This document shows, one piece after another, positions 7,165 through 43,689 of a stretch of 43,689 nt of DNA. The notes beneath the pieces were generated by a model. It did not search any database. It had not been told where the DNA came from and saw only the letters and a program-made list of their open reading frames with translations. The stretch lies in contig JAMOVV010000080.1 of assembly GCA_027067385.1 (NCBI GenBank), positions 1-43,689 of the forward strand, read 5' to 3'. This DNA is from Desulfarculaceae bacterium (lineage in GTDB: Bacteria; Desulfobacterota; Desulfarculia; Desulfarculales; Desulfarculaceae). The position numbers were made by a program, and so were the translations under genes. Every line of letters begins with the position of its first letter. Position 1 is the stretch's first letter.

Positions 7165-7908
7165 GTGTCCCAGCTCAAACCGCAAGCAAGGCCCGTGGTC
7201 ATCCAGTGCCAAGGCGTGGGGCTCAAGTTCCGACGGCGGCGGCGCAGCCTGCTGGCGACCGGCGCGGCGCCGCCGGTGCGGGACTTTTGGGCCCTGCGCG
7301 ACATCTCCCTGGAGATACGGGAAGGGGAGCTGGTGGGCATCGTGGGGCGCAACGGCGCCGGCAAGAGCAGCCTGGCCCTGCTGTTGACCGGCATCTACCG
7401 GGCCGACGAGGGCCGCATCCAGGTGAACGCCCGGGTGAGCCGGCTGGCCCTGGGCATCGGCTTTCGCATGGACCTCACCGGCCGCCAAAACATCTTCATC
7501 AACGGCGCCTACCTCGGCTTCTCCCGCCGGCAGATCATCCGCCGGCAGCAGGAGATAATCGACTTCGCCCAACTGCAGGATTTCATCGACGAGCCGCTGA
7601 ACCACTTTTCCGACGGCATGCGCGCCCGCCTGGCCTTTGCCATCGCCACCTGCATCGAGCCGGAGGTGTTGGTGCTCGATGAATCCTTTAACACCGGCGA
7701 CGAGGGCTTTCGGGCCCGCTCCCGGCAGCGGGTGCTGGAGATAGCCGGACAGGCCAAGGCGGTGGTGATGATCTCCCACAACCTCGTAAACCTGCAGGAC
7801 CTGTGTCCCCGGGTGATCTGGCTGGAATCCGGACGCCTGAAGATGGACGCCCCGGCCGAGGAGGTCCTGCCCCGCTACCGCCAGTTCTGCCTGGAGCACG
7901 CCGCCTAA
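7165..7908 (+). CDS. Polysaccharide ABC exporter ATPase (Wzt/TagH-like)
   Basis: The chosen GTG start follows GAGGAG by about eight bases and gives 247 residues; upstream in-frame codons lie inside the permease gene. The protein has a Walker A loop GRNGAGKSS (61-69), a signature-like SDGMRARLAFA (about 148) and Walker B VLVLDES (about 168-174). The ALGIGFRMDLTGRQNIFINGAYLG region is characteristic of the Wzt/TagH/KpsT branch. It powers export of the glycan through the preceding permease. It lacks the long C-terminal glycan-recognition domain of O-antigen Wzt proteins such as E. coli O9a, so it may not need a terminal cap residue on the polymer. It ends four bases inside the oppositely oriented next gene. 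Confidence 0.9.
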   Translation: MSQLKPQARPVVIQCQGVGLKFRRRRRSLLATGAAPPVRDFWALRDISLEIREGELVGIVGRNGAGKSSLALLLTGIYRADEGRIQVNARVSRLALGIGFRMDLTGRQNIFINGAYLGFSRRQIIRRQQEIIDFAQLQDFIDEPLNHFSDGMRARLAFAIATCIEPEVLVLDESFNTGDEGFRARSRQRVLEIAGQAKAVVMISHNLVNLQDLCPRVIWLESGRLKMDAPAEEVLPRYRQFCLEHAA

Positions 7909-9671
7909 GGCGCCGGCCGCGCCTGGCGCTGGCCGCTGCCCGGCGGCCGGCCGTACACGCAGAAGAAGCGCCCGCACCCCAGCAAGGGGAAACGCCGGCG
8001 TATCCAGGTCTTCATTTTGTCTTTACCCGGCCTTTGGGGAAAACATCCCTGGTCCTGGTAGCGCTGGGGGTTGTCCAGGATGATCAGCAGGCCGGGCTGC
8101 TCCAGGTCGCGGCGCAGGCGGTCCTGGCAGCCGGCGTATTCCCACGGGTTCCACCAGTCGATGGAAGTAGGGTTGCGGGTGCCCGAGAGATAGTGGAACA
8201 GTGGGAACTCGCCCACCACCGCCAGTTTTACCCCGGGATAGCGGCGGGTGAGGTCCCGGGCCGTGGCGGCCAGGGCGGCGTGGCGGGCATGGTTGCAGGG
8301 GTTGCTGTAGAGCCGGCCGAAGCGCGGGTAGATATCGGCCAGGTCGCTGGTGAGCGCGGCGCGGGGCTGGTCCATGTAGGGGTGCTGGTAGTTGAAGGCC
8401 AGGAAGCTGCCGGCCACCACCAGCAGGCAAACCAGGGCCGCGGCCGCGGCCAGCCGGCGGCCGGCCCGGTTGGCCACCGCCCGGTCGTGGGCCATGGCCA
8501 AGACGGCCCCGGCGCCGCCCAGGCCCAGCAGAGGGGTATTCCACCCGATGCTCAGCGAGGCGCTCCAGCCCAAAAGGACCACCCCGGAGCACAGCACCGC
8601 CGCCGGCCAGAAGTCTTGCTGCGAGCCGCGACGCATGACCCACAGCACCCAGGCCCCCGCCCCGGCCACCAGGCCCAGGGCCCACTTGGCCCCCATGGAT
8701 ACCTGGTCGTAAGGGTCGAGGATCCACACCGTGTAGAACACCATGCCGGCCACGCCCAGCAGGGCCGCGACCAGGATGGCCACCGGCCACCAGGGCCGGG
8801 TGCGGGGGAGGTAGCGATAGGCCAGGGCCACCAGGATAATCGCCGCCGCGCCGGCCAGCAGCCGCTTGAAGCTGGTCATGTAAGTGGCAAAGCCGTAGGC
8901 GCCCAGGTAGCCGTGGAAGTGCGACTGGATAACCTGGTGGTAAAAGGGCTCCAGGGCCCCGGCGGCATGCAGCAGCCAGAGGAATACCCCGGCGATCAAG
9001 ACCAGCGGCAAGAGCGCCGCCCCGGCCCCGGCCGCCAGCCGCGCCGTGAGCCGCCCCTGCCTCCGCCAGCCCCAGAGCGTCTCCAGCCCAGTGGCCCCGA
9101 GATACCAGGCCGGCAGCACGGCGAAGTTTTGTTTGCAAAGCGCTGCCAGGCCAAAACACAGCCCGGCTGCGAAACGCAGGCCCAGCCCGGCGGCCAGGCC
9201 GCGGCCGCGGTCCAGGGCGTAGAGCCAGAGCACCAGCCCGCCGTAGCCCAGCATCACCCCGTCCACCGTGGTCCAGGGCATGGGCGGAAAGATGTGTATG
9301 GCCAGGAACCAAGCGGTGGCCACCAGGCAGAGGTTGGCCACGCCCATCTTGAACAGGCCGCGGCCCAGGGCCCACCACGCCGGCAACAGCACGGTGAGCG
9401 ATATCTGCAGGTAGAACCCCAAACGGGCGGCCAGGAACTGGCTGCCGGCCGGCAGCAGCATCCAGAGACTGTGCAGGTAGGCCGAGAGCGGCGGGCGCAA
9501 AAAGATAAAGTCACGGTAGGGCACCTCGCCGCCGGCCACCCGCCAGGCCAGGCCCAGCACCACCCCGTCGTCGCTGGGGTGATAGGCCCAAAAGCCGTAG
9601 GCGCCATAAACGCCGGCGCTCAACAGCACCACCACGCCGGCCAGCAGGATTTTCGCCGCGGACTTACTCAC
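7905..9671 (-). CDS. GT39/ArnT-like membrane glycosyltransferase
   Basis: This polytopic membrane protein of 588 residues has about ten or more hydrophobic helices. Just after the first helix lies HPSDDG, followed by a periplasmic-loop-like segment VPYRDFIFLRPPL. That layout (acidic pair after helix 1, then Y-D and RPPL) is typical of GT-C enzymes of the PMT/ArnT superfamily, which use lipid-linked sugars on the outer face of the inner membrane. The GTG start at 9671 is chosen because GGAGAG lies six bases before it; a longer start would put poorly hydrophobic residues ahead of the first helix. The gene converges on the exporter ATPase gene with a four-base overlap of their ends. It probably decorates the exported glycan, a lipid or a protein. 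Confidence 0.75.
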   Translation of the reverse strand: MSKSAAKILLAGVVVLLSAGVYGAYGFWAYHPSDDGVVLGLAWRVAGGEVPYRDFIFLRPPLSAYLHSLWMLLPAGSQFLAARLGFYLQISLTVLLPAWWALGRGLFKMGVANLCLVATAWFLAIHIFPPMPWTTVDGVMLGYGGLVLWLYALDRGRGLAAGLGLRFAAGLCFGLAALCKQNFAVLPAWYLGATGLETLWGWRRQGRLTARLAAGAGAALLPLVLIAGVFLWLLHAAGALEPFYHQVIQSHFHGYLGAYGFATYMTSFKRLLAGAAAIILVALAYRYLPRTRPWWPVAILVAALLGVAGMVFYTVWILDPYDQVSMGAKWALGLVAGAGAWVLWVMRRGSQQDFWPAAVLCSGVVLLGWSASLSIGWNTPLLGLGGAGAVLAMAHDRAVANRAGRRLAAAAALVCLLVVAGSFLAFNYQHPYMDQPRAALTSDLADIYPRFGRLYSNPCNHARHAALAATARDLTRRYPGVKLAVVGEFPLFHYLSGTRNPTSIDWWNPWEYAGCQDRLRRDLEQPGLLIILDNPQRYQDQGCFPQRPGKDKMKTWIRRRFPLLGCGRFFCVYGRPPGSGQRQARPAP

Positions 9672-9893
9672 AGCTCTCCACCGTTTCCCGCCGGGGACCA
9701 TCCCCGGCGGGCCGCCCCTTCGGCGACCGACATAACATAGCACCGGCCGGGCAAAGAGGCCAAGGAGCAATCACCGCCGGCGGCCACCCCGGCCCAATGG
9801 CCTTGTGGCACCCTGGTTCGTCGTGTTAGCATGCGCTGGTTTCCGGCGTCCACGGACCCAAACTCCAGCAACCCCCACCCCACGCGGCGGTTT

Positions 9894-20313: not shown

Positions 20314-22407
20314 TTAGCGGGCGCAGTCCACGTAGAGGAACCCGCCGCAGCGTCCGTCGCAGCGGCGCCCGGAGTTAACCACCCAGGTGGCGTTGAAGTC
20401 GCGCTTGTACCAGTGCACCGCGTGGTGGTAGCCCTTCTTGCGGCAGAAGTCGTCGGCCGCCGGCTGCCCGCAGTTGGTGGCCCAGGTGAGGCACCAGTCC
20501 CAGGGCAGGCCGTTGTAGCGCGGGTTGTTGAAGCGCACTACGTTGCCCCCGCCGCCGGAACGGCAGGAGTTGAGGGCGTTAACCCGAGCCCGGTCCTCGC
20601 TGTTGGCCGCCGCGGCGCTCACCCCCCGGCACCAGTTGTAGTGGTTGTTCCAGTTATTTTGCCAGCGGTTGCCAGTGAACCCGCAGTTCCAACGCAGGTT
20701 GCGCCGGTTCTGGTTCACCGCCCGGTCGGCGTAGCGGCGGCAACGCTGGTTGGCGCTGCCCTGACACCGGTTCAGGGCGTTGACACGGGCTTGGTCTTCA
20801 TGCCGGGAGGTGGAGGCGCTCACCCGACGGCACCAGTTGTAGTGGCCGTTCCAGTTGTTGCTCCAGCGGTTGCCGGTGAACCCGCAGCCCCGCCGCAAGT
20901 TGGTACGGTTCTGGTTCACCGCCCGGTCGGCGTAGCGGCGGCAGCGCTGGTTCACCCCACCCTGGCAAGAATGGAGGGCGTTAACCCGGGCCTGGTCCTC
21001 GCGGTGGGCCACCGCGGCGCTCACCCGGCGGCACCAGTTGTAGTGACCGTTCCAGTTGTTGCTCCAGCGTCTGCCGGTGAACCCGCAGCCCCATTGCTGG
21101 TTGCGCCGGTTCTGGTTCACCGCCCGGTTGGCATAGTGGCGGCAGCGCTGGCTCACCCCACTCTGGCAAGAGTGGAGGGCGTTAACCCGGGCCCGATCCT
21201 CGCTGTTGGCCACCGCGGCGCTAACCCCACGGCACCAGTTGTAGTGGCCGTTCCAGTTGTTGCTCCAGCGTCTGCCGGTGAACCCGCAGCCCCGCCGCAA
21301 GTTGGTACGGTTCTGGTTCACCGCCCGGTCGGCGTAGCGGCGGCAACGCCGGTTGGCGCTGCCCCGGCACCGGTTTAAGGCGCTGACCCGGGCCCGGCTC
21401 TCGCTGTCGGCCACCGCGGCGCTAACCCCACGGCACCAGTTGTAGTGGCCGTTCCAGTTGTTGCTCCAGCGGCTGCCGGTGAACCCGCAGCCCCACTGCA
21501 AGTTGCGCCGGTTGTGGTTCACCGCTCGGTCGGCGTAGCGGCGGCAACGCCGGTTGGTGGTGCCCTGGCACCGGTTCAAGGCGTTGGTACGGGCCTGGCT
21601 CTCGCTGTTGGCCGCCGCGACGCTAACCCCACGGCACCAGTTGTAGTGACCGTTCCAGTTGTTGCTCCAGCGGCTGCCGGTGAACCCGCAGCCCCACTGC
21701 AGGTTACGCCGATTCTGGTCCACCGCCTGGTCGGCGTAGCGGCGGCAACGCTGGTTGGCGTTGCCCTGGCACCGGTTCAAGGCGTTGGTACGGGCCTGGC
21801 TCTCGCTGTTGGCCGCCGCGACGCTAACTCCAAGGCACCAGTTGTAATGGCCGTTCCAGTTGTTGCTCCAGCGGTTGCCGATGAACCCGCAGCCCCACTG
21901 CAGGTTACGCCGATTCTGGTCCACCGCCTGGTCGGCGTAGCGGCGGCAACGCCAGTTGGGGTTGGGAGGAGGCGAGCTGACCCGGAATATCTTCACCTGC
22001 AGTCCACCCTGGTTATCCCGGTAGTCGGTATCGACTATGCGGAAGAAGATAGGCTGGCCATTGGAGATAAAGTGGGCCGAGCGGTAGACATGGCCGGGAT
22101 TATAGGTCCCGGGACAGTAGTTGATCCCCAGGTTGTTTTGCAAAATGGTCATGGGTCGCTGGGCCCCCGGCTCGCCAAAGCTGTAACACGAGTCGTTTCT
22201 CAGGATACCCCCCATGATGCTTCGGCCGAAGATCAGGGAGCCTTCCACCTGGATGTAGTACTTGGCCCCGGCCTGCAGGTTGATCGGTCCCACCTGGCGG
22301 CCATCGCCCGGAATATAACCCTGCCAGTGCAGTTGTGCGGCGTGGGCCGTCAGGGCAAGGCCACACACCAACGATATGATAAAGAGAAGACCTATAGTTT
22401 TTTTCAT
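20314..22407 (-). CDS. Secreted protein with lectin-like N-terminus and seven Cys/Trp-rich repeats
   Basis: I do not recognise a named family for the whole protein (697 residues). Residues 1-23 form a signal peptide (MKKTIG, hydrophobic core, AHA). Residues 24-150 look like a beta-sandwich: VEGSLIFG, then FFRIVDTDYRDNQGGLQVKIF near the end, a layout that recalls calcium-dependent galactose-binding lectins of the PA-IL type, though this is a visual likeness only. Residues about 151-619 are seven copies of a 67-residue unit with four cysteines each (unit positions 4, 23, 41, 63) and conserved YA..AV, WGCGF, RW.NNWN.HYNWC. The last 78 residues form a different Cys-rich domain with WDWCLTWATNCG. 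The exported, basic, presumably disulfide-bonded protein may bind carbohydrate. GGAGGGGG is its ribosome-binding site. Confidence 0.85.
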   Translation of the reverse strand: MKKTIGLLFIISLVCGLALTAHAAQLHWQGYIPGDGRQVGPINLQAGAKYYIQVEGSLIFGRSIMGGILRNDSCYSFGEPGAQRPMTILQNNLGINYCPGTYNPGHVYRSAHFISNGQPIFFRIVDTDYRDNQGGLQVKIFRVSSPPPNPNWRCRRYADQAVDQNRRNLQWGCGFIGNRWSNNWNGHYNWCLGVSVAAANSESQARTNALNRCQGNANQRCRRYADQAVDQNRRNLQWGCGFTGSRWSNNWNGHYNWCRGVSVAAANSESQARTNALNRCQGTTNRRCRRYADRAVNHNRRNLQWGCGFTGSRWSNNWNGHYNWCRGVSAAVADSESRARVSALNRCRGSANRRCRRYADRAVNQNRTNLRRGCGFTGRRWSNNWNGHYNWCRGVSAAVANSEDRARVNALHSCQSGVSQRCRHYANRAVNQNRRNQQWGCGFTGRRWSNNWNGHYNWCRRVSAAVAHREDQARVNALHSCQGGVNQRCRRYADRAVNQNRTNLRRGCGFTGNRWSNNWNGHYNWCRRVSASTSRHEDQARVNALNRCQGSANQRCRRYADRAVNQNRRNLRWNCGFTGNRWQNNWNNHYNWCRGVSAAAANSEDRARVNALNSCRSGGGGNVVRFNNPRYNGLPWDWCLTWATNCGQPAADDFCRKKGYHHAVHWYKRDFNATWVVNSGRRCDGRCGGFLYVDCAR
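20551..21957 (-). repeat. Seven in-frame 201-bp tandem repeats
   Basis: The coding DNA is a head-to-tail array with a 201-bp period (67 codons), seven units long. Neighbouring units are very similar, for example those encoding NALNRCQG and the RRCRRYAD junction, suggesting recent amplification or gene conversion. Differences fall in a few positions: TG[SNR]RW, SES versus SED, and LQWGCG versus LRRGCG. Confidence 0.9.
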
Positions 22408-33252: not shown

Positions 33253-34650
33253 TCAAGCATCTAATGACCTCCGGCGGGCCGCACCCACCATGGCGCCGGC
33301 CCACTGCGGCAGTCCCAGCACGTGGATGTGATGGTAGGTGCCCAGCACGTTTTTGTATATCAACCCGCCGCCTTGTCCCAAAATGGCCTTGCCCCGCTGG
33401 ACCAGGTAGGCGAACTGCAGCTCGGCCCCGGGCAGGGGCACCGGCTTGGAATAGTGGAACTGGTGGGCCCGAAACTCCAATCCCGGTTCCATGAACCAGT
33501 TGTCCTCTTGCACCAGGCATACCGAGTAGCCGTGTCCCTGGGGCTTGTTTTGCATCTCGAAGCTGAGCGGGAAGACATCGGCCAGGTGGTAGGCCTGGCC
33601 CTGGACCACCAGGCTGTGGCCCAGGTACATCATGCCGCCACACTCGGCATAGATGGGCAGGCCATCCTCGGCCGCCTCCTTCACCGCCCGGCAGAAGGAG
33701 CGGTTGGCCGCCAGGCTGGCGGCGTGGGTCTCGGGAAAACCGCCGCCGATGTACAGGGCGTCCACCGCCGGCAGGGACCTGTCATCCAGAGCCGAGCAGT
33801 AGACCAGGCGTGCCCCGTGGTTGGTGAGGGCCTCCAGGTTGTCGGCGTAGTAGAAACCAAAGGCCGCGTCGCGCACCACCCCGATGGTCACCTCGGCCGC
33901 CCGCGGCCGGCCCGCAGCGGGGAAGAGCCCCTGGGGCGGCTGCCGCGTTTCCGGGGTGCGGGCGGTGGACATGATGGCCATGAGCTGGTCCACGTCCACG
34001 TGGGCGGCCACCAGCCGGCCGGCCTGGTGCAGGGCCTCCGACACCGCCGAGTGCTCCTGGGGCGGCACCAGGCCCATGTGCCGCTCGGGCAAATCCAGCT
34101 TTAGCCGCGGCACCGCGCCGAGCACCGGCAGGCCGCAGGTGTTCTCGATGGCGCTGCGCACCACGCCCTCTTGGCGGGGGTTGGCCACCGGGTTGAGGAT
34201 CACCCCGGCCAGGTTCAGCCCGGGGTCGAAGCGCTGGCAGCCCAGCACCACCGCGGCCACGGTGCGGCTGGTCATGGAGCAGTCCACCGCCAGCACCACC
34301 GGCACGCCGAGCCACTTGGCCAACTCGGCGGTGGAGTAGCTGCCGTGCTCGTCCTTGCCGTCGAACAGGCCGCGGTTGCCCTCGATCACCGCGGCGTCGA
34401 AACCAGCGGCGCGAAAGGCGAAGGACCTCTCCACCTGGGAGCGGCCCATCATGTAGGGGTCCAGGTTGTGGCAGGGGTTGCCGGCCGCCTCGGTGTGCCA
34501 AAAGGGATCGATGTAGTCCGGCCCTTTTTTGAACGGCGCCACCGACAGGCCTCGGTCGCGCAGGGCCTGGATCAGCCCCAGGGCGATGGTGGTCTTGCCC
34601 GACCCGCCGCGCAAGGCGGCCACGACCACGCTGGGTACAACCTGTGCCAT
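33253..34650 (-). CDS. dsrN: Siroheme amidase DsrN (cobyrinate a,c-diamide synthase family)
   Basis: The 465-residue protein has an N-terminal P-loop domain (ALRGGSGKTTIALGL; FKKGPDYIDPFWH) and a C-terminal class I glutamine amidotransferase domain (YIGGGFPETHA, catalytic Cys in YAECGGMMYL, later HQFHYS). This is the CobB/CbiA architecture. Next to dsrAB, such proteins are DsrN, which amidates siroheme to the siroamide form used by dissimilatory sulfite reductase. A cobalamin role is possible but less likely given the context. A terminator-like hairpin at 34847-34879 lies between dsrB and this gene, so it may be expressed at a lower level than dsrAB. No strong ribosome-binding site is visible. 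Confidence 0.9.
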   Translation of the reverse strand: MAQVVPSVVVAALRGGSGKTTIALGLIQALRDRGLSVAPFKKGPDYIDPFWHTEAAGNPCHNLDPYMMGRSQVERSFAFRAAGFDAAVIEGNRGLFDGKDEHGSYSTAELAKWLGVPVVLAVDCSMTSRTVAAVVLGCQRFDPGLNLAGVILNPVANPRQEGVVRSAIENTCGLPVLGAVPRLKLDLPERHMGLVPPQEHSAVSEALHQAGRLVAAHVDVDQLMAIMSTARTPETRQPPQGLFPAAGRPRAAEVTIGVVRDAAFGFYYADNLEALTNHGARLVYCSALDDRSLPAVDALYIGGGFPETHAASLAANRSFCRAVKEAAEDGLPIYAECGGMMYLGHSLVVQGQAYHLADVFPLSFEMQNKPQGHGYSVCLVQEDNWFMEPGLEFRAHQFHYSKPVPLPGAELQFAYLVQRGKAILGQGGGLIYKNVLGTYHHIHVLGLPQWAGAMVGAARRRSLDA

Positions 34651-34922: not shown

Positions 34923-36008
34923 CTACCACTTGAACTGGGTGGAGTTCCGCCAGGTGGTCGCGGCAAAGCGATAGTCGTCGATGTGGTGGTGGCTGAACTC
35001 CAGGCCGGTCTTCTCGAAGAAGCGCTCCCAGCCGATCCGCTCGGCCCACTCACCGACACGCTCGTAGCGGTTGGCGTCAGCGGCGTAGGCCTCCACGATC
35101 TGGCGAATGATCTTCACCGTGGTCGGCCAACGAGGCGGCTCGTTGGGGATGAAGGGTACGGCCAGCTTGGAGAACTTGGGCATGGAGCGGGTGTTGGACA
35201 CCTTGCCGCCCACCCACAGGGCGATACCGTCGCCATCGGCGTCGGCCAGGGGCATGGCCGGGCACATGGTGTAGCAGTTACCGCAGAACATACACCGGTC
35301 GGCGTTAACCGTCACCGACTTGTAAACCTCACCGTCGACCTCTTCCTTGGACGGCTTAATGGCCGCGGTGGGGCAAGCGGCGATGGTGGTGGGAATCTCG
35401 CACATCTTGTCCAGGTGGGAGTGCTCAATGACCGGGGGCTTGCGGTGCACGCCGAGGATAGCGATATCCGAGCAGTGCACGGCGCCGCACATGTTGAGGC
35501 AGCAGGCGAGTGAGATGCGCACCTGGGCCGGCAGCTTGTGGGAGCCCCAGTACTCAAACAGGTCGTCCATGACCGCCTTGACCACGCCGGAGGCGTCGAT
35601 GGCCGGGGTATGGCAGTGGACCCATCCCTGGGTGTGCACGATGTTGGTCACGCCGGCGCCGGTGCCGCCCAGGGGCATGTTGCCCTTGTCGGCCAGGGCC
35701 TTTTTCAGGGCCTCCAGCTTGGACTCGTCGGTCACCATGAACTCGATGTTGTTACGAGTGGTGAACCGGAAGTAGCCGTCGCAGAACTCATCGGCGATCT
35801 TGCAGTACTCCTCGGCCTGGTCAGTGGTCATCAGGCGGGTACCGGGAATACGCACGGTGTAGAGCTTGGTACCGGTCTCGGAAACGTGCAGCAGGACGCC
35901 GGGCTCCAGGATGTCGTGGTACAGCCACTTGCCGTAGTTGTCCTTGATGACGTCAGGCCACATCTCATCGTATTTCGGCGGCCCAATATCGGTTATGCGA
36001 TCTTGCAT
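34923..36008 (-). CDS. dsrB: Dissimilatory sulfite reductase beta subunit
   Basis: DsrB carries the catalytic siroheme-[4Fe-4S] centre of the A2B2 enzyme that reduces sulfite to a DsrC trisulfide. The 361-residue protein shows C132, then C169, C170 and C174 ([14 protein letters not shown]) as siroheme-cluster ligands. An inserted ferredoxin domain has C239, C242, C245 and C249 ([13 protein letters not shown]). TRNNIEF and HTPAIDASG are conserved family segments. AAGGAGG precedes the ATG at 36008, 24 bp after dsrA. All key residues are present, so the enzyme should be active. Confidence 0.98.
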
Positions 36009-36032
36009 GGTATGAAACCTCCTTTTGCCGTC

Positions 36033-37307
36033 CTAACGGGCGTGCTTCTCACGGTAATCAGCGATGTCGCGCTGGAACCCGCCAGGAACCTCATCTTCCT
36101 TGTAGAAGATGTAGGGGTTGGAACGAGGCTCCCGGATGTGGCGCGGATCAGGATCGATCTCCACGGCCTTCAAGAACTCCGACAGGCCCAGGCGCTGGAT
36201 CAGCTCACCGATGCGCTCGCGGTTCTTACCGTTCTCATCCCACCAGTCGATGGCCTTTTCGGCGAAGTCCATCAGGTCGCCGTACTGCCCCTCTTCCAGC
36301 TTCATGAAGGGCACGATCACCGAGCCCAACTGGGCGCCTTCCAGGATCGGGGCCTTGGCGCCGACCAGGATGGTGGCGCCGGTGTCGGTGCCGGGGCGCA
36401 GGGCCTGGGGCATCATGTTGATGCAGTGCATGCAGCGGGTGCATTCCGCGTTGTTGATGGTCAGAGTCTTGCCGTCCCAAGCCATGCAGCCGGTGGGGCA
36501 CAGGTCCACCACGTCGGCCTGGATGTCGAGCTTGGTCTCCTGGCCATGGGCGCCGCCGTTGGCCGCCAGCTCACCGCCGGCATAGGCCGCCACCGCCTCG
36601 GCGTTGATGCGAATGTCGTCGCGCCAGGTGCCGATGATGGAGCAGTCGGAACGGGCGATGGAAGCCACGCAGTCGTTGGGGCAACCGGAGATCTTGAACT
36701 TGAACTTGTAGGGCCAGGCCGGGCGGTGCAGCTCGTCCTGGAACTCCTGGGTGATGGTGTAGCAAAGGTCCTGGGTGTCGATGCAGGCCCACTCGCAACG
36801 CGCCTTGCCCACGCAGCAGGACGGGGTGCGCAGCGCCGAACCAGAGCCACCGAGGTCCCAGCCCTTGGAAGTCATCTCGCCAAAGATGGGCTCCAGCTCC
36901 TCGGTGAAGGCGCCCAGAAGCACCATGTCGCCGGTGGAGCCGTGCAGGTTGAGCATGCCGCTGCCCCGACGATTCCAGATGTCGAGAATCTCGCGCAGGC
37001 GCTCGGTCTTGTAGAACTTGGAAGCAGGCTGGTTAACACGCAGGGTATGGAAGTGCTCCACACCGGGGAACAATTCGGGCACATCCGAATAACGGCCGAT
37101 AACGCCGCCGCCGTATCCCAGAACGCCGACGATACCGCCGTGCTTCCAGTGACCCTCCTTGTCCTTGTAAGACAGCTCGAGCTGACCCAAAAGGTCGGCA
37201 CAGGCTTCCTTGCCGGCTTCCGCCATCTTTTTGATGTCGGTAACAAAGCTCGGCCAGGGGCCCTTCTCGAGCTCGTCCAGCATCGGAGTCTGATGCTTAA
37301 TAGCCAT
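36033..37307 (-). CDS. dsrA: Dissimilatory sulfite reductase alpha subunit
   Basis: DsrA is the structural partner of DsrB. The 424-residue protein has the siroheme-cluster cysteines C165 and C171 (CVGKARC) and C209 and C213 (GCPNDC). Its ferredoxin domain has C270/C274 and C289, C292, C295 (CTRCMHC). The N-terminal ELEKGPWPSFVTDIK and WKHGGIVGVLGYGGGVIGRYSD are typical of bacterial reductive-type DsrA. Full length, with GGAGGGACC ahead of the ATG. It has an exact consensus promoter and a leader of about 230 nt. Confidence 0.98.
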   Translation of the reverse strand: MAIKHQTPMLDELEKGPWPSFVTDIKKMAEAGKEACADLLGQLELSYKDKEGHWKHGGIVGVLGYGGGVIGRYSDVPELFPGVEHFHTLRVNQPASKFYKTERLREILDIWNRRGSGMLNLHGSTGDMVLLGAFTEELEPIFGEMTSKGWDLGGSGSALRTPSCCVGKARCEWACIDTQDLCYTITQEFQDELHRPAWPYKFKFKISGCPNDCVASIARSDCSIIGTWRDDIRINAEAVAAYAGGELAANGGAHGQETKLDIQADVVDLCPTGCMAWDGKTLTINNAECTRCMHCINMMPQALRPGTDTGATILVGAKAPILEGAQLGSVIVPFMKLEEGQYGDLMDFAEKAIDWWDENGKNRERIGELIQRLGLSEFLKAVEIDPDPRHIREPRSNPYIFYKEDEVPGGFQRDIADYREKHAR

Positions 37308-42013: not shown

Positions 42014-43333
42014 CTATTCCGGCGGCTGCCAATCATCCTCGTCGTCCTCGATGCCAAAGGCCTCCCACTGGGCCGCGCCTTCGGCCAGAGACTTCTCCTG
42101 CTCCTCCTCGGACCAGGGCTCGATGACGATGGCCTCGGACAACAGCTCCCAGAGGTAGAAGGTCTCGATGCCCAGATCGTACTCCGGGGTGAGGCCCTTC
42201 ATGATTTGGTCGCGGCAGTTGTGGCAAGGGGCCACGCAAATCTCGGCGCCGGTATCCTTGATCTGCTGGGCCTTCTTGCGGCCGTAGTAGAGCCGCTCGG
42301 CCGTGTAGGGCATGGCCCAGGCGCCGCCGCCGGCTCCGCAGCAGTAGTTGTTTTCCTTGGTGGGATAGGTGTCCACCCAGTCGGTGCAGATTTGATCGGT
42401 GATCCAGCGGATATCGTCGTAGTAGCCGTGTCCAAAGGTCTTTTCAGACTTGCGGCAGTAGTTGCAGGGATCGTGCACCGTGGCCAGCTTGCCCTCGAAC
42501 TTGGAGCGGTCGATCTTGACCCGACCCTCCTTGATGTACTCGATCATCAGCTCGAAGACGTTCATGACCTTGAACTCTTCAAAGGCCTCGGGGAACCACT
42601 TTTGCAGACCAAGCCTGGTCGCGAAGTAGGCGTGGCCTCACTCGGGTAGGAGTAGTATCTCCGACTCCACCCGGCGCGCGTTTTCCAGGACGCGGCTCAC
42701 CTGCTCCTTCATCGACGGATCGTCGCCGCTGAACAGGCCCCAGTTGACGCCTTCCCAGTTGACGCTGGATACCGTCCAGGACTCCTTGGCGGCGTAGTAG
42801 ATTTTCCACCAGAACTTCATGTCGTCCGGCTCGCCAAAGGGCTCCTTGGAGTTGATGGTGGTGATCACCCGGGCACCCTTTTTGTCCACCGGTACGTAGA
42901 AGCCGGGGCAGCCCTCGTCCTGCATCTCCTTGCCCAGGTCCATGAGCAAGAACAGGAAGTCGTCCTTGGGAATACCCAGGTTGTTGCCGCGCTCCAGGTT
43001 CATCATGGTGCCCTTGTGGATCGGGCCGGGCACCTCGTCGCGATCGCGCAGGCCGCGCGCGGTGCGCAGCATGGCCAGTATCTCCACCCCCATGGGACAG
43101 GCGCGCTCGCAACGGCCGCACAGGGTGCAGATCCAGGGGAAGCGGCTGTTGATCAGCTCGTCATCCAAACCCAGCGCCGCCATGCGTACCGCCTTGCGCG
43201 GGTCCATGCCGTCGACACCGGTGATCGGGCAACCGCCGGCGCAGGTGCCGCAGGTCAAGCATACGTCGGCCCACTTGGGGTCCACCCGCAGCTTGCTCTC
43301 GCGCTTTCCTATCTTAATCGGTTCTTGGCTCAT
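42014..43333 (-). CDS. Selenocysteine-containing DsrK/TmcB/HdrD-type iron-sulfur protein
   Basis: One frame of 440 codons is interrupted only by a TGA at 42638-42640; read as selenocysteine it gives 439 residues with Sec at 232. The N-terminal half has two [4Fe-4S] motifs: C25/C28/C31/C35-Pro and C69/C72/C75/C79-Pro. The C-terminal half has a CCG-type cysteine-rich domain: C290 and C293, then CCGAGGG (C331, C332), then CHNC (C370, C373). The codon before UGA gives PE and the next GHAY; in related proteins this is PECGHAY, so Sec replaces a conserved Cys. A SECIS-like hairpin follows. DsrK, TmcB, HmcF and HdrD pass electrons between membrane quinones or cytochromes and thiol/disulfide partners. 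At this length TmcB or HmcF is the closest guess. A real nonsense mutation is the alternative, but all motifs after the codon are intact. Confidence 0.85.
42601..42640 (-). promoter_or_regulatory. Candidate bacterial SECIS element with Sec UGA codon
   Basis: Directly after the UGA (42638-42640), minus-strand RNA can fold GACCA-GGCU-UGGUC (stem 42616-42620 with 42607-42611, loop 42612-42615). The stem extends outward by GC/GC past a single bulged U and then UU/AA. The loop begins GG and starts 23 nt after the UGA. A short GG-type apical loop at this distance is what SelB-binding bacterial SECIS elements show. Confidence 0.75.
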
Positions 43334-43641
43334 CGTCGTCTCCCAGAGATCTCATGGGCGGTGTAACACCTCACCGCGCCGATTGTCACCGATCCCCTCT
43401 CAACTAATTGCCACCATGTTCATCAGCCTAACTGACAAAACGTATCATAATTGACCAGCCCACCCAATAGCTATTTCTATGCCGGCGGCTATCGCTATGC
43501 CGGCTCCGGCTCCTGCCTGCGCCGGCAGATAGCTCGGTGGAAACAAGTTCCACCTCGCTACCGGCTCGCTCCCGCTCGCCGGGCGGGACATCATGTCCCG
43601 CGGGACGGGCCTAAGCCCCCTGCCGGGTCGCAGGTTAACCC
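43334..43641. other. Intergenic region upstream of the iron-sulfur selenoprotein gene
   Basis: The 308-bp gap holds no convincing gene. An AT-rich stretch at about 43436-43480 (with TATGAT read leftward) probably carries the promoter, but no good -35 was identified. Inverted repeats include GGTGGAA/TTCCACC (about 43533-43553) and GCGGGACATCATGTCCCGC (about 43583-43601); these likely end the leftward gene at the window edge. GGGAG precedes the ATG at 43333. Confidence 0.55.
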
Positions 43642-43689
43642 CTAGTACTCCACCGGCAAGGTGTCCAGGTAGGCCTTGGTGAAAACAGG
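43642..43689 (-). CDS. C-terminal fragment of an unidentified leftward gene
   Basis: The window edge cuts a leftward frame whose last 15 codons read VFTKAYLDTLPVEY before TAG (43642-43644). Codon usage and the hairpins that follow suggest a real gene end, but too little remains to name it. It could belong with the iron-sulfur gene about 300 bp downstream, though the hairpins argue for separate transcripts. Confidence 0.45.
   Translation of the reverse strand, partial: PVFTKAYLDTLPVEY

What the first reader, a model, noticed from the sequence alone, without database searches (positions are those of the whole stretch)
42014..43333. Iron-sulfur electron-transfer protein with in-frame UGA at a conserved cysteine: probable new-position selenoprotein
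Seen: two open segments on the minus strand are in the same frame, separated only by TGA at 42638-42640. The upstream part has two [4Fe-4S] motifs, and the downstream part has the CCG cysteine-rich domain needed for the same protein. Neighbouring residues (PE-U-GHAY) match the PECGHAY context known from DsrK/TmcB-type proteins. Known: Fe-S oxidoreductases of this large family (GlpC-like) include selenoproteins in some Desulfobacterota. Inference: Sec232 may ligate a noncubane cluster or form a Se-S redox pair, tuning electron flow in sulfate reduction.
Basis: partly seen in the sequence, partly recalled or inferred. Interest (0 to 1): 0.88.

Follow-up and report, generated by a model that had tools for sequence, protein, structure and literature searches.

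The report
Selenoprotein subunit beside NADH-linked Hdr genes
A sulfate-reducer gene that looks broken by a stop codon is a genuine selenocysteine-containing iron-sulfur protein of an already described family, and its unusual feature is its place next to genes for an NADH-driven energy-conserving complex, sometimes paired with a selenium-free twin operon.

Summary
Window 42014-43333 (minus) is one 440-codon frame interrupted only by TGA at codon 232 (42638-42640). In 89 homologous loci codon 232 is TGA in 84 and TGC in 5, with nothing else seen. Just downstream lies a conserved, co-varying bacterial SECIS hairpin with a GG apical loop 22 nt after the UGA. The genome carries selA, selB, selD (itself with an in-frame TGA) and tRNA-Sec(UCA). 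It is a selenoprotein in all but direct proof.

The "new-position" claim is not supported. This is the known "Fe-S oxidoreductase (GlpC)" selenoprotein family (Zhang 2006), whose published Sec motif is UGH, exactly PE-U-GH here. The protein is an HdrC+HdrB fusion of the HmcF/TmcB/DsrK superfamily but scores far below those equivalog cut-offs.

What looks less familiar is the setting. Close orthologues end a cluster hdrA-flxD(Sec)-flxC-flxB-flxA-[this gene], and the window contig breaks inside the flxA tail. One relative carries a parallel operon with Cys in both flxD and this gene, beside the Sec operon (84% DNA identity over the shared part). Most likely it is the high-potential, disulfide-reducing arm of a Flx-HdrA electron-bifurcating complex, with Sec232 next to the noncubane cluster; this function is inferred.

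The parts
42014..43333 (-). Selenoprotein gene: fused HdrC/HdrB-like (HdrD/GlpC-type) Fe-S oxidoreductase, 439 aa with Sec232
42638..42640 (-). In-frame TGA, Sec232 (motif PE-U-GHAY)
   Evidence: TGA in 84/89 homologous loci, TGC in 5
42604..42622 (-). bSECIS hairpin in the coding sequence; core stem nt 21-25/30-34 counted from the T of TGA (42607-42620), loop GGCU starting 22 nt after UGA
   Evidence: compensatory changes; synonymous-codon-shuffle mean z -2.94 against -0.18 in control windows; meets published bSECIS limits
43229..43261 (-). Cys motif C25-x2-C28-x2-C31-x3-C35 (first [4Fe-4S])
   Evidence: invariant in A1; Fer4_8/Fer4_17
43097..43129 (-). Cys motif C69-x2-C72-x2-C75-x3-C79 (second [4Fe-4S])
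   Evidence: invariant in A1; Fer4_8/Fer4_17
42215..42466 (-). CCG domain Cys set C290, C331-C332, C370, C373 (predicted noncubane [4Fe-4S] ligands)
   Evidence: invariant in A1; Pfam CCG; aligned to EtfD and HdrB
43642..43689 (-). C-terminal tail of the upstream flxA-like gene (PVFTKAYLDTLPVEY*), cut by the contig end
   Evidence: matches the FlxA C-terminus GPVFTKAHLDQLPKEY* of orthologous locus L119

Best explanation
The gene encodes a full-length selenoprotein. UGA-232 is decoded as Sec by SelB/tRNA-Sec at a SECIS hairpin 22 nt downstream (shown by comparative evidence, not by protein data). The product is an HdrC-HdrB fusion: two cubane [4Fe-4S] clusters feed one noncubane [4Fe-4S] cluster in the CCG domain (C290, C331, C332, C370, C373, probably with H234), and Sec232 sits two residues from H234 in the degenerate first CCG domain (inferred from alignment to EtfD Cys581/His583). 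By conserved gene order it is the terminal subunit of a Flx-HdrA complex: NADH to FlxA, FlxB/C, FlxD, then HdrA flavin bifurcation, giving reduced ferredoxin plus electrons to this protein, which reduces a high-potential disulfide. DsrC is the best candidate, being encoded in the same genome with both C-terminal cysteines. Complex, acceptor and bifurcation are inferred.
For: Sec: position; machinery; SECIS. Two stem pairs switch on both sides (G-C to A-U, C-G to U-A), with coupled Gly/Ser and Leu/Phe changes. Codon R240 ends in GG in 69/70 genes, against about 39% of Arg codons elsewhere, and places GG in the loop. Fold: AlphaFold pLDDT 90; best PDB matches EtfD 9ojn, then HdrB and HdrC among the leading hits. 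Operon: hdrA-flxD(U)-flxC-flxB-flxA-gene in L118, L119, L120, and hdrA with flxC, flxB, flxA also in L039, L041, L042, L046, L047, L054, L096, L103; flxA tail in the window. DsrC with CX10C end; dsrAB 5 kb away in the window.
Against: No protein or RNA evidence exists here. An intergenic gap with inverted repeats (192 nt in L119, about 300 nt in the window) separates flxA from this gene, so co-transcription is not shown. More distant Sec homologues have other neighbours: NiFe hydrogenase operons, or none of these genes. The rest of the Flx module is not seen in this 86% complete assembly: no FlxB match. The window hairpin alone is only mildly better than its own codon shuffles (z -1.5). Model coordinates could not be measured, so the Sec-cluster distance is untested.
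Confidence: 0.62

Rival explanations
1. Same selenoprotein, but it works as a free-standing or membrane-linked electron carrier (HmcF/TmcB/DsrK-like) or with a hydrogenase-Hdr complex, and the Flx neighbours are only loosely related.
For: Superfamily scores to HmcF 202, TmcB 175 and DsrK 141 bits; spacer and inverted repeats before the gene; homologues in hydrogenase operons, including a 64% identical paralogue in the same genome.
Against: All three scores lie far below the equivalog cut-offs (750, 735, 400). No hmc/tmc/dsr membrane genes were seen beside it. flxA lies directly upstream in nearly all close orthologous loci that reach far enough to show it, and in one genome a Cys paralogue follows a near-copy of the same Flx module.
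Confidence: 0.33
2. UGA is a real stop: a 231-residue Fe-S protein plus a separate CCG protein or pseudogene remnant.
For: A downstream ATG ORF of 183 aa exists. Any standard annotation would read TGA as a stop.
Against: Codon 232 is TGA or TGC in all 89 loci. The SECIS co-varies and is kept beyond protein coding need. Full Sec machinery is present. The CCG domain is conserved across the UGA in dozens of genomes.
Confidence: 0.02
3. Sequencing error or a genome-wide UGA reassignment rather than Sec.
For: None beyond the in-frame TGA itself; the assembly is a draft.
Against: The same TGA occurs in dozens of independently assembled genomes. TGA is used as an ordinary stop in the relatives, e.g. 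the flxD end in L118/L119. tRNA-Sec(UCA), selA and selB are present.
Confidence: 0.01

Closest known systems
Fe-S oxidoreductase (GlpC) selenoprotein family (Zhang et al. 2006, PMC1794560; review PMC13188914, motif UGH, PTHR43551)
   Same: Sec in the identical UGH motif, Desulfobacterota, Fe-S oxidoreductase; the in-genome paralogue lies in the published order glpC-hdrA-frhD-frhG-frhA.
   Different: The window gene lies at the end of hdrA-flxD-flxC-flxB-flxA (NADH-linked) instead of a hydrogenase operon.
FlxABCD-HdrABC NADH dehydrogenase/heterodisulfide reductase (Ramos 2015, as cited in PMC10553843 and PMC6687939)
   Same: HdrA, FlxD/MvhD, FlxC, FlxB and FlxA homologues adjacent; DsrC encoded in the genome.
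   Different: HdrB and HdrC are replaced by one fused protein; Sec in both FlxD and this subunit; gene order differs.
HmcF / TmcB / DsrK
   Same: Cubane-cubane-CCG architecture; Cys at the aligned position (ECGHAY/ECGTAY).
   Different: Scores well below the equivalog cut-offs; separate branch in the tree; no membrane-complex genes seen beside it.
EtfD (PDB 9ojn) and HdrB
   Same: Leading fold matches; CCG ligand set C290/C331/C332/C370/C373 corresponds to the noncubane D2 ligands of EtfD; H234 aligns with His583.
   Different: Only the second CCG domain has a full ligand set; Sec232 aligns with Cys581, which in EtfD binds a linear [3Fe-4S] cluster whose other ligands are missing here.

Membership tests
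Bacterial selenoprotein gene | In-frame UGA aligned with Cys in homologues | tested here: met
   84 TGA / 5 TGC; Cys in HmcF/TmcB/DsrK-like paralogues
Bacterial selenoprotein gene | bSECIS: loop 3-9 nt, stem 4-16 bp, G in the first two loop positions, 16-37 nt spacing, MFE <= -7.5 kcal/mol | tested here: met
   loop GGCU (4 nt), 5 bp plus 2 bp across a bulge, spacing 22 nt, -8.4 kcal/mol
Bacterial selenoprotein gene | selA, selB, selC, selD in the genome | tested here: met
   595 bits; 414 bits; tRNA-Sec, TCA; selD with TGA
Bacterial selenoprotein gene | Selenium demonstrated in the protein | not testable with these tools
   needs 75Se labelling or mass spectrometry
Fe-S oxidoreductase (GlpC) selenoprotein family | Sec in a UGH motif | tested here: met
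   PE-U-GHAY; published motif UGH
Fe-S oxidoreductase (GlpC) selenoprotein family | Direct sequence match to the published reference (WP_174406253.1 / PTHR43551) | not tested
   reference sequence and PANTHER model not held; linked indirectly by the in-genome paralogue in the published operon
HmcF / TmcB / DsrK equivalogs | Score above the NCBIfam curated cut-off | tested here: not met
   202/750, 174.6/735, 141/400 bits
FlxABCD-HdrABC complex | Adjacent flxABCD and hdrA genes | tested here: met
   orthologous loci L118, L119, L120, L096 and others; in the window itself only the flxA tail is visible
FlxABCD-HdrABC complex | Separate HdrB and HdrC subunits | tested here: not met
   replaced by this fused protein; the gene before hdrA in L118 and L120 is a phosphoribosyltransferase
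HdrB | Two complete CCG domains with two noncubane clusters | tested here: not met
   one Pfam CCG domain; residue 232 is the only Cys/Sec kept in the first domain

The most novel reading that the evidence does not exclude
Desulfarculaceae run an NADH-driven Flx-HdrA bifurcating complex whose disulfide-reducing arm is a single fused HdrCB subunit, in two parallel versions: one with Sec in both FlxD and the terminal subunit, the other all-Cys. This would be a bacterial counterpart of the Vhu/Vhc selenium switch of methanogens. It rests on one clear genome (G006) plus partial contigs.
Probability: 0.35. Interest if true: 0.6.

Novelty: new member of a known kind. Interest (0 to 1): 0.38.

Why it matters
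The gene would be annotated as two truncated proteins, hiding a conserved energy-metabolism selenoprotein across Desulfobacterota. If the Flx link is right, selenium supply would control an NADH/ferredoxin/disulfide bifurcation step in sulfate reducers. The Sec/Cys operon pair would give a natural test of what Sec adds next to a noncubane cluster.

Tried and rejected
Rfam gave no SECIS-like hit (bacterial SECIS are poorly covered). Single-sequence folding of the window hairpin is not significant alone (z -0.2 to -1.8), so the family-wide codon-shuffle and covariation tests were used. Same-codon conservation over 233-247 was not above the gene average, so synonymous conservation as such is not evidence. 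FlxB was not found in the own genome, most likely because the assembly breaks there. Presence of selB does not separate genomes with only Cys copies: G002 keeps selB. Plasmids hold only distant relatives. DsrK identity was rejected on score. I looked for literature on Sec-HdrD with Flx and found none in the papers searched, which is not proof of absence.

Full report
Observation. On the minus strand, 43333 to 42014 is one frame of 440 codons whose only internal stop is TGA at codon 232 (42638-42640). Read through, the protein has two dicluster motifs and one CCG domain.

Is it more than chance? Yes. In 89 homologous loci from two genome collections, the aligned codon is TGA in 84, TGC in 5 and nothing else (some genomes appear in both collections, but 70 TGA genes are unique at the DNA level). 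Residue 232 is one of the invariant columns of a 30-sequence alignment. HmcF/TmcB-like and DsrK-like paralogues carry Cys there.

SECIS. Counting from the T of TGA, positions 21-25 pair with 30-34 around a GGCU loop, 22 nt after the UGA. Two of five pairs change on both sides (18 cells, 0 of 500 shuffles reach this), and sliding the partner strand destroys the pairing. One co-varying change pairs a silent Thr codon change with Gly/Ser, another pairs a third base with Leu/Phe, so the RNA constrains the protein. A second register with a CGG loop serves more distant members. Against synonymous-codon shuffles, the 27-nt region folds with mean z -2.94 in 70 genes, against -0.18 in 387 control windows; 69 of 70 genes use a GG-ending Arg codon at 240, against about 39% elsewhere. 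The published bSECIS limits are met. The window hairpin alone is modest (z -1.5).

Machinery. selB 414 bits, selA 595 bits, selD with its own internal TGA, tRNA-Sec with anticodon TCA. The genome decodes Sec.

Known or new? The family is known. Zhang et al. 2006 (PMC1794560) list Fe-S oxidoreductase (GlpC) as a selenoprotein family found in the operon glpC-hdrA-frhD-frhG-frhA. A 2026 review (PMC13188914) gives its Sec motif as UGH, which is PE-U-GH here. Desulfobacterium autotrophicum hdrD4 is a Sec protein too (PMC2702500). "New position" is therefore wrong. The genome also holds a 64% identical Sec paralogue (contig C179) whose neighbours are a HycI-type protease, hdrA, mvhD(Sec), mvhG and mvhA: the published operon.

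Context of the window gene. Orthologues in Desulfarculaceae lie behind hdrA, flxD/mvhD (with Sec, GUHPGDCHY), flxC, flxB and flxA. The window contig ends inside flxA: its last 48 bases encode PVFTKAYLDTLPVEY*, matching the orthologous FlxA end. flxB is missing from the 86% complete assembly. A spacer of about 190-300 nt with inverted repeats separates flxA from the gene, so co-transcription is not shown.

Sec and Cys operons. In relative G006, one 75 kb contig carries both the Sec operon and a second hdrA-flxD-flxC-flxB-flxA-glpC operon in which flxD reads GCHPGDCHY and the terminal subunit has Cys (47% identical to ours). DNA identity is 84% over 6.3 kb of the shared module but drops to 69% in the terminal gene. 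Contigs of G016 and G001 also start in a flxA tail followed by Cys versions. This suggests one NADH module paired with alternative terminal subunits. The comparison with the methanogen Vhu/Vhc pair is from the description quoted in PMC2702500.

Evolution. In a tree of 86 proteins the Sec label needs 3 changes. Two Syntrophobacteraceae Cys forms (L083, L085) lie inside the Sec clade, most simply a Sec-to-Cys reversion; a separate Sec subfamily (L029, L133-L135, NTE-U-GHEFF) sits with a Cys member.

Structure and mechanism. AlphaFold gives pLDDT 90. The leading solved folds are EtfD (9ojn), HdrB and HdrC. A profile alignment pairs Sec232 with EtfD Cys581 and His234 with His583. In EtfD, His583 plus five CCG cysteines bind the noncubane cluster and Cys581 binds a linear [3Fe-4S] cluster (PMC13083937). 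Our protein keeps the five CCG cysteines and His234, but of the other cluster only residue 232 remains. So Sec232 is a lone chalcogen beside the noncubane cluster, suited to act as an extra ligand or as the nucleophile towards a disulfide. This step is inference.

Acceptor. The genome encodes DsrC ending C-x10-C, and the window holds dsrA and dsrB. Flx-Hdr complexes are described as linking NADH, ferredoxin and DsrC (PMC10553843, PMC6687939). DsrC is thus the leading candidate acceptor.

Verdict. A genuine selenoprotein (about 0.97 on comparative evidence), a member of a known family, in a Flx-HdrA setting that I did not find described. Interest is moderate; the Sec/Cys operon pair is the part worth pursuing.

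Noticed in passing
window 34923-37307 (-), with 33253-34650 (-): dsrA (576 bits) and dsrB (522 bits), followed by a CobB/CbiA-type a,c-diamide synthase: a dissimilatory sulfite reductase cluster about 5 kb downstream of the selenoprotein gene.
   Followed up: partly
L142 6965-14624 against L120 (genome G006, contig C1): Parallel Cys-only and Sec versions of hdrA-flxD-flxC-flxB-flxA-glpC in one genome, 84% DNA identity in the shared module and a divergent terminal subunit.
   Followed up: yes
L119 3489-3917; L121 5444-5827: flxD/mvhD genes with an in-frame TGA (GUHPGDCHY, GUHLGECHY): a second selenoprotein in both operon types.
   Followed up: partly
L083, L085 (Syntrophobacteraceae): TGC at codon 232, nested inside the Sec clade and without the Arg GG codon at 240: probable Sec-to-Cys reversion.
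   Followed up: partly
L029, L133, L134, L135: A second, about 37% identical Sec subfamily with motif NTE-U-GHEFF.
   Followed up: no
L105 (G000 contig C126 16514-17437): selD itself carries an in-frame TGA (selenoprotein SelD).
   Followed up: no
window 20314-22407 (-) and 7905-9770 (-): Two long ORFs (697 and 621 aa) without any Pfam match; they may be unknown genes or GC-driven spurious frames.
   Followed up: no
window 43334-43640: Intergenic stretch rich in inverted repeats (e.g. GTCCCGCGGGACATGATGTCCCGC) between the flxA tail and the selenoprotein gene; possible terminator or attenuator.
   Followed up: no
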